Part shown: positions 5,643 through 21,514 of the stretch, one piece after another
How positions within the stretch are numbered: the stretch's first letter is position 1
Layout: each line of letters starts with the position of its first letter
NCBI RefSeq assembly: GCF_023256255.1
Contig: NZ_JAGDXD010000055.1
Span: 1-37,499, forward strand
Direction: 5' to 3'
Origin: Caldivirga sp.
GTDB lineage: Archaea; Thermoproteota; Thermoprotei; Thermoproteales; Thermocladiaceae
Length of the DNA stretch: 37,499 nucleotides
Notes under the pieces: model-generated
The model's database searches: none
What the model saw: the letters and a program-made list of their open reading frames with translations, nothing else
Told to the model about the DNA's origin: nothing
Program-made: the position numbers and the translations under genes

Positions 5643-6008
5643 ATGGCTAGTGTTAAATTAATACGAGAAACCAGAATGAAGGTAACAACCCACAATAAGG
5701 CAGTACACATGAAGATAAGTGTGGTCACTAAGCTTAAGGAGTACGCATCCTCCTCTAAGGGAAACCTCATAACGGTTAGGCCAAGTAAGATAGCCCAAGA
5801 GATAAACACCGTAGGGAGGGTAACCAGGGCTGATGGGGTTGTTATAAGGAATTTCCTGGAGCAGTTAGTTGAGAGGGGGTACATGGAGGTTATTAAGAGG
5901 AGCGCTAGGGGTAAGGTATACGGAATACGAAAGGGGGGTGAATTCTGGAAGCTCTTAATGTCCCATAATCCTGAAGACATTCTTGACTTAGTAAACATAG
6001 AGGAGTAG
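5643..6008 (+). CDS. Small winged-helix DNA-binding protein
   Basis: A 121-residue basic protein that reads as a winged helix-turn-helix. A first helix follows the basic N-terminus (MKISVVTKLKEYASSSKGN). The helix-turn-helix lies at about residues 46-80 (RPSKIAQEINTV, then GVVIRNFLEQLVERGYMEVI), with a wing around KRSARGKVYGIRK. Crenarchaea carry many such small winged-helix proteins of unassigned role. It stands alone, with its own TATA-like box and a perfect palindrome upstream, which would suit autoregulation. The C-terminal acidic tail (PEDILDLVNIEE) has no recognised function. It could be a chromatin-associated rather than gene-specific protein. Confidence 0.6.
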   Translation: MASVKLIRETRMKVTTHNKAVHMKISVVTKLKEYASSSKGNLITVRPSKIAQEINTVGRVTRADGVVIRNFLEQLVERGYMEVIKRSARGKVYGIRKGGEFWKLLMSHNPEDILDLVNIEE

Positions 6009-6081
6009 AATCCTAAGTCTACAGCCGTAAAATATACGCAGATTCAAGTTTTTAAGCAACATGAACTACACCCTTCAAGTG

Positions 6082-6125
6082 AAGATGACGGGATGAACTG
6101 AATAGTGATGAGAACCCGGGCCTGA
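6082..6125 (+). ncRNA. Candidate C/D box guide sRNA
   Basis: The full box order of an archaeal C/D sRNA is present with correct spacing: a C-like box AAGATGA (6082-6088, 6 of 7 to RUGAUGA), 9 nt, D' box CTGA (6098-6101), 3 nt, C' box GTGATGA (6105-6111), 10 nt, D box CTGA (6122-6125). Such RNAs guide 2'-O-methylation at the base paired to the fifth guide nucleotide before D or D'. The D guide GAACCCGGGC complements nine bases of the T arm of the tRNA-Thr at 14736 (CCCGGGTTC), which by the rule would point to G51. It lies in a 283-bp gap between genes. A terminal stem is weak, so box spacing is the main evidence. Confidence 0.5.
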
Positions 6126-6291
6126 GATTGTCCTAATACTGCTATTAGCTAATAATGGTTTAATAATATGAAGTAGTACTTTTATTCTACATTTATGCTT
6201 AAATAATTAATAATATAAATGCTTAGTTTCACTGTAAAAATAACGAATAACGCATTAATGTTTAAAAACTCGGCATGTTAAGGTAAGTCTA

Positions 6292-7671
6292 ATGGGCAAA
6301 ATGTATGATGTGCTTATTGTTGGTGCTGGCACAGCAGGTTCATATGCAGCCTACCTAATGGCCAAGCAGGGATTAAGTGTAGCGTTAGTAGAGCGCAAGA
6401 GGGCTGAGGATGTTTTTAAAGTAACTGGCGATGCTATTGGGAAGCATCATATTGATGAGTTAACGAGAGCAGGTTTAAGCATCAGTGAGGATGTATTCAT
6501 GATTAGGTACGAGGGTGCTGAATTATATAGCCCAGACTTAAGTGTTAAGTACTTTGTGGCAGGTGAGGGTTTCGGCTTAGATATTAGTAAGTGGGCTCAG
6601 TGGCTCATTAATATTGCCAATAATAGTGGTGCAGACATAATAGATAAGCACACAGTCTCAGCGCCAATAATCGAGGGGGGCTTTGTTAGGGGTGTTAAGG
6701 CAAGTAGGAGTGATGGGACCCAGGTTGAATTGAGGGCTAAGGTTACCGTAGATGCCTCAGGCGCCACTGGGGTTGTAAGAACCAAGTTACCTCCCCAATA
6801 TAGGATTAGTGAACCACTACTACCTGAGGACGCCTCCTACGCCTATAGGGAGATTATTGAGGTTGATTATAGTATACCTAATCCGCAGAACATAAGGATA
6901 TACCTTGATAACAACATATCGCCAGGTGGCTATTGGTGGTTTTTCCCCAAGTCAAATAGGGTTGCTAATGTGGGTTTAGGTATCTGGGGTAAGTTGGTTA
7001 AGGAAAACGGCTTAAACCCCAGGGTTAACTATGAGAGGTATCTAGTACCCTCACCCTATGTTAAGGGTAGGAAAATACTGCATGCTGGTGGTGGGATAGT
7101 GCCAACGAGGAGGCCACTAGCTAGTATGGTTGGTCCAGGGATTGTTGCAGTGGGGGATGCCGCAGTGGCGGTTAACCCAATTCACGGTGGTGGTATTGGA
7201 CCCGCATTATTATCCTCAGAATTAGCCTCCAAAGCCATAGTTGAGGCCTTAGAGAAGGGTGACGTCTCGGAAACTGGCCTATGGAGGTATAACTTGGATT
7301 ATCTAAATGCATACGGCATTAAGCAGGCTCAACTAGATGTATTTAGGCTAATGCTACAGACCCTTACTAATGAACAATTAAATAGGGGATTAAGGGCTAG
7401 GATACTTACTGAAGATGAAGTCTTGAAGATGTCAATAAGCGGTAACCTTGACTTAAGTAGTGGTAAGAAGGTGATCATGGCACTTAGGTTGCTTAAAGTC
7501 CCTGATGTAGCTAGAAAATTATCATTAGCATTAAGGTACATGAATGAAATCAGGAAAATATACGTCAATTACCCAAACAACCCCAGTGACTTAAATAACT
7601 GGTTGGTGGCGTTAATAGCTAAGTACAATGAGTATAGGCTTAAACTTAAACTACCCTTAATGACCATTTAG
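6292..7671 (+). CDS. Geranylgeranyl reductase family flavoprotein
   Basis: A 459-residue FAD-dependent oxidoreductase. The N-terminal dinucleotide fold has GAGTAG at residues 11-16 and VVLVE-type strand end (VALVERK). The central GGYWWFFPKSNRVANVGLG matches the substrate-site 'Y.W.FPK' signature of archaeal geranylgeranyl reductases. The second FAD motif is GIVAVGDAA, followed by NPIHGGGIG. These enzymes saturate isoprenoid chains of archaeal ether lipids or free geranylgeranyl diphosphate. A TATA-like box TTTAAAAACT at 6261-6270 is about 26 bp before the ATG. A class II aldolase gene follows after 8 nt and is probably co-transcribed. The exact substrate (lipid-bound or free isoprenoid) cannot be told. 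Confidence 0.82.
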   Translation: MGKMYDVLIVGAGTAGSYAAYLMAKQGLSVALVERKRAEDVFKVTGDAIGKHHIDELTRAGLSISEDVFMIRYEGAELYSPDLSVKYFVAGEGFGLDISKWAQWLINIANNSGADIIDKHTVSAPIIEGGFVRGVKASRSDGTQVELRAKVTVDASGATGVVRTKLPPQYRISEPLLPEDASYAYREIIEVDYSIPNPQNIRIYLDNNISPGGYWWFFPKSNRVANVGLGIWGKLVKENGLNPRVNYERYLVPSPYVKGRKILHAGGGIVPTRRPLASMVGPGIVAVGDAAVAVNPIHGGGIGPALLSSELASKAIVEALEKGDVSETGLWRYNLDYLNAYGIKQAQLDVFRLMLQTLTNEQLNRGLRARILTEDEVLKMSISGNLDLSSGKKVIMALRLLKVPDVARKLSLALRYMNEIRKIYVNYPNNPSDLNNWLVALIAKYNEYRLKLKLPLMTI

Positions 7672-20925: not shown

Positions 20926-21514
20926 TACTGATGAACTTAGAAAGCATAGGCAAAGAATAGAGGAACTACACTCAGCAATAAGGGTTAGGCCAATTAGTAT
21001 TAATTGGAGTATAGTGAACACTATTAATAAGGCTCTCTCCGTTAAGAGTGATGAAAAGAAGATTATCTCTAGAGGTGATAAGAGATCATTTAAGATTGAT
21101 GATGTTGAAGTAGTTGTAGCCGACACTGTAAGTGTAGCGAGCAGCTACATGAGCATATACAGTACCTATGCAGTAAACATGATGAGGATAAGTAATGTTA
21201 TTGAGAATATTATCAACGGTAATAAATCACTCATATACATTGATCCATTCACAGGTACGGCAATAATAATATTAAATCACCCAACTAAGGTACCACTAGT
21301 TGACACAGAATCATTAAAGAACACTATTGATTCATTAATGATACTTAACATGGGTTATGTTGAGAAAGGCGAAATCACTACCACTCAGTTTGATTCCAAT
21401 ATTGATGTATCACCAATATTGGAATCATTATCGAGCAAATCGGATTCAGTATACATTGATGTAGATGATGATGTTTACTACATTATTAGGAAATACATGC
21501 ACCATGAGAAGTAG
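20906..21514 (+). CDS. Protein of unknown function, second of a pair
   Basis: A 202-residue soluble protein. ATG 20906 overlaps the upstream gene by 20 nt and has GGTG 7 nt before it; GTG 20918 is an alternative. The N-terminal helix (TDELRKHRQRIEELHSAI) resembles a coiled coil. A hydrophobic strand pattern (SLIYIDPFTGTAIIILNHP) and an acidic end (YIDVDDDVYYIIRKY) follow. No catalytic or metal motif stands out. It converges on the Mrp ATPase gene with a 23-nt gap. Confidence 0.5.
   Translation: MLPLVVNTDELRKHRQRIEELHSAIRVRPISINWSIVNTINKALSVKSDEKKIISRGDKRSFKIDDVEVVVADTVSVASSYMSIYSTYAVNMMRISNVIENIINGNKSLIYIDPFTGTAIIILNHPTKVPLVDTESLKNTIDSLMILNMGYVEKGEITTTQFDSNIDVSPILESLSSKSDSVYIDVDDDVYYIIRKYMHHEK

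What the first reader, a model, noticed from the sequence alone, without database searches (positions are those of the whole stretch)
6078..6130. Candidate C/D box sRNA with a guide against a tRNA T arm
AAGATGA, CTGA, GTGATGA and CTGA occur in the correct order with 9-, 3- and 10-nt spacing in a gap without a gene. The D guide pairs with nine bases, CCCGGGTTC, of the tRNA-Thr in this window. By the N+5 rule the target would be G51, not a site I know as methylated; the same T-arm sequence occurs in many tRNAs.
Basis: partly seen in the sequence, partly recalled or inferred. Interest (0 to 1): 0.58.

Follow-up and report, generated by a model that had tools for sequence, protein, structure and literature searches.

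The report
Archaeal RNA guide for serine tRNA
A hot-spring archaeon (genus Caldivirga) very probably makes a tiny guide RNA of a well-known class that directs a chemical mark onto transfer RNA, most likely serine tRNA; the class is ordinary, but both arms of this guide seem aimed at the same tRNA, which is unusual.

Summary
In detail: a C/D box sRNA gene lies at 6079-6125 (+), in the gap between two genes. No other place in the window and none of 60 shuffled windows has this box arrangement. In all 5 Caldivirga genomes held, boxes and guides are 89-98% identical, although the next 47 nt are at chance level in most pairs. A TTTTTAA element sits 30-32 nt upstream of box C in all five. One correction: the conserved box C is RTGAAG(A/T) at 6079-6085, not AAGATGA, so the D' guide is 12 nt, not 9. 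Only the four tRNA-Ser pair with the whole D guide (10 of 10, 11 with the first D-box base). The D' guide also pairs with tRNA-Ser(GGA/CGA), 9 bp, N+5 = U39; no rRNA site of D' reaches 9 bp. Best reading: a tRNA-Ser double guide for Gm51 and perhaps Um39, on either side of the variable arm. D to tRNA-Ser is well supported. D' to U39 is moderate: three bases next to the D' box do not pair, and in this genome only 8 bp remain. Expression and methylation are untested.

The parts
6049..6055 (+). TTTTTAA, TATA-like element (putative own promoter; start of transcription predicted about 6078)
   Evidence: Present in 5 of 5 Caldivirga loci, 30-32 nt from its first base to box C; reading as TATA box is inference
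6079..6085 (+). box C, GTGAAGA (one departure from RUGAUGA)
6086..6097 (+). D' guide, 12 nt, TGACGGGATGAA; N+5 = A6093
   Evidence: 10 of 12 positions invariant; 9 WC bp (N4-N12) with ATCCCGTCC of tRNA-Ser(GGA) and (CGA) in G001, 8 bp with the own genome's
6098..6101 (+). box D', CTGA
   Evidence: invariant in 5 of 5
6102..6104 (+). D'-C' spacer, ATA; free to vary in sequence and length (3 or 5 nt)
   Evidence: ATA, AGA, GAA, GACGT, GGTGC
6105..6111 (+). box C', GTGATGA
   Evidence: RTGATGA in 5 of 5
6112..6121 (+). D guide, 10 nt, GAACCCGGGC; N+5 = C6117
   Evidence: N1-N9 invariant, N10 varies; 10 of 10 with the four tRNA-Ser, 9 of 10 with 25 other tRNAs of G001
6122..6125 (+). box D, CTGA
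   Evidence: invariant in 5 of 5

Best explanation
[quoted passage not shown] L7Ae would bind the C/D and D'/C' kink-turns, and Nop5 and fibrillarin would join. The D guide pairs with the 5' strand of the T stem and the start of the T loop of tRNA-Ser (the last variable-arm G to C56) and directs 2'-O-methylation of G51. The D' guide pairs with A38 to the second base of the variable arm of tRNA-Ser(GGA) and tRNA-Ser(CGA) and may direct 2'-O-methylation of U39. The two sites flank the base of the long variable arm, so the sRNP must bind the tRNA before or while it folds. Shown: gene anatomy, conservation and complementarity. Inferred: transcription, RNP assembly, methylation and any effect on folding.
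For: Only box arrangement of its kind in the window, none in 60 shuffles. Present in 5 of 5 Caldivirga genomes at the same place between the same two genes. Core identity 0.89-0.98 against 0.26-0.45 for the 47 nt downstream in 9 of 10 genome pairs (0.89 in the tenth, G001/G002). Guides and boxes are kept while the D'-C' spacer changes in sequence and length. TTTTTAA 30-32 nt upstream in 5 of 5. 17 of the 18 Rfam matches at E up to 5 in the region are archaeal C/D sRNAs on this strand. D guide: 10 of 10 WC with 4 of 43 tRNAs of G001, exactly the four Ser, and 11 with the first D-box base. GCCCGGGTTC is intact in 16 of 16 Caldivirga tRNA-Ser genes read. N1 of the D guide, which only tRNA-Ser can pair, is invariant in 5 of 5, while N10 varies. 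With the N10 of G002 or G004 only tRNA-Ser still reaches 9 bp (against the G001 tRNA set). D' guide: 9 WC bp covering N+5 with 2 of 43 tRNAs, both Ser, and no rRNA site of 9 bp. Chance that a random 12-mer of this window does as well with tRNA-Ser: 83 of 73,984; for a 10-mer matching tRNA-Ser 10 of 10: 7 of 74,000. Both meet, in G001, the published criterion of at least 9 consecutive WC pairs covering the +5 site (PMC4644070, section 16).
Against: No expression or methylation data. D' pairing leaves N1-N3 unpaired, so the target pair is second from the duplex end. In the window's own genome the D' duplex is 8 bp (N12 is T), and in G002 it holds a G-U pair. The D' site is absent from tRNA-Ser(TGA) and (GCT) (0 of 7 genes read). 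The D guide also makes 9 bp with 25 other tRNAs and with a conserved 23S rRNA stem-loop, so exclusivity for Ser is not shown. Box C departs from consensus. No Rfam gathering score is reached. 0 of 76 other genomes of the class hold the D half at up to 2 mismatches, although sister genera G006 and G007 have the same tRNA-Ser T stem. The tRNA-Ser thresholds were chosen after seeing the match.
Confidence: 0.62

Rival explanations
1. A C/D sRNA whose D guide serves many tRNAs at once (G51 in the shared T stem), with an orphan D' guide: the pattern reported for Pyrobaculum tRNA guides.
For: 29 of 43 tRNAs of G001 have at least 9 WC bp covering N+5. [quoted passage not shown]
Against: N1 = C is invariant in 5 of 5 although only tRNA-Ser pairs with it. 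With the N10 of G002 and G004 the non-Ser tRNAs have 8 bp and Ser has 9 (10 with the D-box base). The D' guide has a 9-bp Ser match rather than none.
Confidence: 0.27
2. A C/D sRNA whose D guide methylates 23S rRNA in the stem-loop AACCCGGGTTCAACCGGG (H68 tip by my placement, from recall), with tRNA matches a by-product of a shared sequence.
For: ACCCGGGTTC pairs 9 bp (N2-N10) with the D guide in the 23S of G001 and G003, the two held, and the stem-loop is in the archaeal LSU consensus.
Against: N1 mismatch to A; only 8 bp would remain with the guides of G002 and G004 (by reading); predicted duplex -18.1 against -20.4 kcal/mol for tRNA-Ser; no 9-bp D' site in the 23S to make a double guide.
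Confidence: 0.08
3. Not an sRNA gene: a protein- or L7Ae-binding element in an mRNA leader, or a conserved sequence of other kind.
For: No expression data; weak self-folding (z 0.62), which is also expected of C/D sRNAs.
Against: Conserved block stops just after the D box; both guides are constrained; own TATA-like element; the downstream gene has its own TTTAAAAA (6261-6268), 31 nt before its ATG, so the element is probably not in its leader (inference).
Confidence: 0.03

Closest known systems
Pyrobaculum tRNA-targeting C/D box sRNAs (Lui et al. 2018; known to me here only through the review PMC7994747)
   Same: C/C'/D/D' anatomy, guide lengths, conserved tRNA target region, related archaea
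   Different: Those are described as having one tRNA guide and one guide without target; here both guides match tRNA-Ser. No sequence comparison with the 110 families was possible (paper not held).
Pre-tRNA-Trp intron C/D RNA (Cm34 and Um39; PMC7994747 section 6)
   Same: Double guide with both targets in one tRNA, one of them U39
   Different: That RNA is the intron of its own target; this one is a free-standing intergenic gene aimed at tRNA-Ser
Pyrobaculum aerophilum Cm56 guide (Renalier et al. 2005, as told in PMC7912444, passages)
   Same: C/D sRNA acting on the tRNA T arm; Trm56 is not detected in 25 of 25 genomes of this family either
   Different: N+5 here is G51, five nucleotides from C56, so this is not the Cm56 guide. 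A narrow pattern for a Cm56 guide found none in the 5 Caldivirga genomes.
S. acidocaldarius guide predicted for C50 of tRNA-Gly(CCC) (PMC7668247 section 8)
   Same: Position-50 (T-stem) 2'-O-methylation attributed to a C/D guide, reported there as observed
   Different: Neighbouring nucleotide, another tRNA

Membership tests
[quoted passage not shown]
   GTGATGA, CTGA, CTGA; RTGATGA and CTGA in 5 of 5 genomes
[quoted passage not shown]
   GTGAAGA, one departure, TGAAG invariant in 5 of 5; the G-A pairs of the kink-turn would be kept and U-U would become A-U (from recall)
[quoted passage not shown]
   12 and 10 nt in 5 of 5; range from PMC4644070 (passage)
[quoted passage not shown]
   D guide 10 (11) with tRNA-Ser; D' guide 9 with tRNA-Ser(GGA/CGA) in G001, but 8 with the own genome's tRNA
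[quoted passage not shown]
[quoted passage not shown]
   needs RNA; presence of the three protein genes was not searched either
Rfam sR1, sR14, sR35, snoPyro_CD | Gathering score of the family | tested here: not met
   21.0/45, 22.8/38, 20.0/60, 23.0/45 bits: alike in architecture, not a member of these target-specific families
Cm56 tRNA guide | N+5 opposite C56 | tested here: not met
   N+5 of the D guide is opposite G51

The most novel reading that the evidence does not exclude
A free-standing double-guide sRNA dedicated to one tRNA family: it holds both strands at the base of the tRNA-Ser variable arm, methylates U39 and G51, and acts as a folding chaperone for this GC-rich tRNA at high temperature. 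Its D' guide may descend from one that read the intron-exon junction of pre-tRNA-Ser: it matches intron-bearing pre-tRNA-Ser(CGA/TGA) of sister genus G006 over 11 contiguous bp, better than the tRNA-Ser genes of its own genus (9).
Probability: 0.3. Interest if true: 0.55.

Novelty: new member of a known kind. Interest (0 to 1): 0.4.

Why it matters
It adds a genus-conserved tRNA guide in Caldivirga, a genus known for split and intron-rich tRNAs, and names specific, testable methylation sites (G51 in the T stem, U39) in tRNA-Ser. If both guides act on tRNA-Ser, tRNA guides need not be single-armed as described for Pyrobaculum, and C/D sRNPs could help fold long-variable-arm tRNAs as they are proposed to do for rRNA.

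Tried and rejected

Cm56 guide: considered because Trm56 (PF01994) is missing in 25 of 25 family genomes, rejected because N+5 is G51. The pattern TGATGA-N(2-10)-GAACCCTGA found 0 in 5 Caldivirga genomes and one match each in 5 of 81 class genomes, not followed up.

rRNA targets: my first scans (and the rRNA rows) read the loci L052-L054 on the wrong strand, because loci of the genome search are not turned; the 10-bp '23S match' there is on the antisense strand and is withdrawn. One search repeats the scan on the rRNA strand for LSU of G001 and G003 and SSU of G001, plus the two SSU pieces of G003 (which had been the right way round). The loci hold up to 1.5 kb of flank on each side, so hits in them need not be rRNA; the 23S stem-loop was confirmed as LSU. 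SSU of the window's own genome was not found, nor SSU or LSU of G002; LSU of the own genome and rRNA of G004 were not searched.

Homologues outside the genus: weak blastn hits were read by eye. L007 (G037) looks like a real C/D sRNA with a similar D' guide but not the same neighbours, so homology is not claimed. L142, the single exact match to the D half outside Caldivirga in genome contigs, lies inside a long open frame of a bacterial MAG: chance.

Secondary structure of the RNA alone: uninformative. 5S, SRP and RNase P RNA and mRNAs were not tested as D' targets.

Full report
WHAT IS THERE. Between an ORF ending at 6008 and one starting at 6292 the + strand reads GTGAAGA (6079-6085), 12 nt, CTGA (6098-6101), 3 nt, GTGATGA (6105-6111), 10 nt, CTGA (6122-6125). 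Both registers are literally present. A scan of both strands for the C-D'-C'-D arrangement, with one mismatch allowed in C and C', finds this place only, and 60 dinucleotide shuffles of the window give none. With no mismatch allowed it finds nothing, because box C departs from RTGATGA at one position.

WHOSE IT IS. The genome is a Caldivirga: the contigs of three same-genus genomes (G003:C78, 30,546 bases; G002:C43, 131,287; G004:C202, 16,381) have the lengths of records titled Caldivirga sp. MU80, UBA161 and RSNS23 in the named collection. G001, one contig of 2,077,567 bases, is C. maquilingensis by my recollection of its genome size; no call names it.

CONSERVATION. blastn against 101 genomes finds the element in all 5 genomes of the genus; hits elsewhere are weak (best E 0.0036). 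The D half with up to 2 mismatches is in 5 of 81 genomes of the class, the same five. An exact scan of genome contigs gives three Caldivirga records and one bacterial MAG, where the match lies within a long open frame. In the five genomes the boxes and guides are 0.89-0.98 identical; the 47 nt downstream are 0.26-0.45 identical, ungapped, in 9 of 10 genome pairs and 0.89 in the tenth. Within the element, the D'-C' spacer changes in sequence and in length (3 or 5 nt), while 10 of 12 D' guide positions and 9 of 10 D guide positions never change. The flanking genes are the same in all five: a 121-aa protein without Pfam match and a GGR_cat/FAD protein. TTTTTAA stands 30-32 nt upstream of box C in 5 of 5, which would place the transcription start at box C if it is a TATA box (inference).

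WHICH BOX C. TGAAG of the upstream register is invariant in 5 of 5. The upstream register also gives the usual guide length (10-12 nt, PMC4644070, passages seen).

RFAM. At the curated cut-offs only the two tRNAs are found in the window. At E up to 5 on 6040-6170 there are 18 matches; 17 are archaeal C/D sRNAs on this strand, 15 of them ending at 6125-6127. Over the whole window at E up to 10, four archaeal C/D families match this place and none matches elsewhere; one nematode C/D family matches weakly at 21411.

TARGET OF THE D GUIDE. Among 43 tRNA matches of G001 (41 recognised by ARAGORN as tRNA genes), 29 have at least 9 WC bp covering N+5; only 4 have 10, all of them tRNA-Ser (GCT, GGA, TGA, CGA), and these reach 11 if the first base of box D is counted, as the published procedure does. 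The other 25 are mismatched at N1. N1 is invariant in the five sRNAs while N10, which would pair with C56, is G, G, T, G, A. With N10 as in G002 or G004, tested against the G001 tRNA set, only the four tRNA-Ser keep 9 bp. GCCCGGGTTC is intact in 16 of 16 Caldivirga tRNA-Ser genes read (4 in G001, 4 in G000, 4 in G002, 3 in G003, 1 in G004). Two of the 16 (L126, L129) were given another name by ARAGORN and are called Ser by my reading; 2 of the 14 Caldivirga loci printed are tRNA-Leu and are not counted.

TARGET OF THE D' GUIDE. GGACGGGATGAA (G001) pairs over 9 contiguous WC bp (N4-N12) with ATCCCGTCC of tRNA-Ser(GGA) and tRNA-Ser(CGA), and with no other of the 43. By my cloverleaf numbering these are A38 to the second base of the variable arm, and N+5 is U39. 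The site is in 9 of 9 GGA/CGA genes read and in 0 of 7 TGA/GCT genes. Against it: N1-N3 do not pair; the own genome's guide has T at N12 (8 bp); G002 has one G-U pair. On the rRNA strands of G001 and G003 no D' site reaches 9 bp covering N+5; the D guide has one 9-bp site, a 23S stem-loop present in both and in the archaeal LSU consensus. Earlier scans of the wrong rRNA strand are withdrawn (see Tried and rejected).

CHANCE. Of 74,000 10-mers of the window (tRNAs and the element masked) 7 match a tRNA-Ser 10 of 10; of 73,984 12-mers 83 match tRNA-Ser with at least 9 contiguous WC bp covering N+5, 470 with at least 8. That both guides hit the same tRNA family is therefore unlikely by accident, but the thresholds were set after the match was seen.

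MECHANISM. Best reading: a C/D sRNP that methylates G51 of tRNA-Ser (well supported as a prediction) and perhaps U39 of two Ser isoacceptors. The two duplexes lie on either side of the variable arm and use bases of the anticodon stem, the variable-arm base and the T stem, so they can form only before or during folding (inference). Guided methylation at U39 is known from pre-tRNA-Trp (PMC7994747 section 6) and a guide site at C50 of tRNA-Gly(CCC) is reported for S. acidocaldarius (PMC7668247 section 8). The literature seen describes tRNA guides of Pyrobaculum as one-armed (PMC7994747 section 6). Searches of the paper library listed no paper that I recognised as describing a tRNA-Ser double guide or a Caldivirga C/D sRNA set; only listings and the passages and sections cited were seen, and the main Pyrobaculum paper is not held.

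VERDICT. A real, ordinary-class RNA gene with an unusual pair of guides. C/D sRNA about 0.97; D guide acting on tRNA-Ser G51, alone or with other tRNAs, about 0.85; Ser as the dedicated target about 0.62; D' at U39 about 0.4. These are judgements.

Noticed in passing
L007 (G037, same order) 1240-1310: A likely C/D sRNA with a similar D' guide (TGACGGGATGTG before CTGA) and a TATATAA upstream, in another gene context; its D side is hard to parse. By eye it could pair with the intron-exon junction of pre-tRNA-Ser of the kind seen in G027.
   Followed up: partly
L122, L130 (G006) and L123 (G007) tRNA-Ser genes: The Caldivirga D' guide matches these intron-bearing pre-tRNA-Ser genes over 11 (G006) or 10 (G007) contiguous bp across the 3' splice junction, more than any Caldivirga tRNA-Ser; no homologous sRNA was found in those genera by the searches run.
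   Followed up: partly
whole family (25 genomes): Trm56 (PF01994) is not detected in 25 of 25 genomes of the family, while four archaeal control genomes ring; Cm56, if present, would need another route such as a C/D guide not yet found here.
   Followed up: partly
G003 tRNA-Ser(CGA), locus L129: ARAGORN calls it tRNA-Phe; by my reading it is tRNA-Ser(CGA) with an intron in the 5' part of the anticodon stem, absent from the same gene in G000-G002.
   Followed up: no
window 6261-6268: TTTAAAAA 31 nt before the ATG of the GGR-like gene (6292), with similar letters in the relatives: probably its own promoter with a leaderless mRNA.
   Followed up: no
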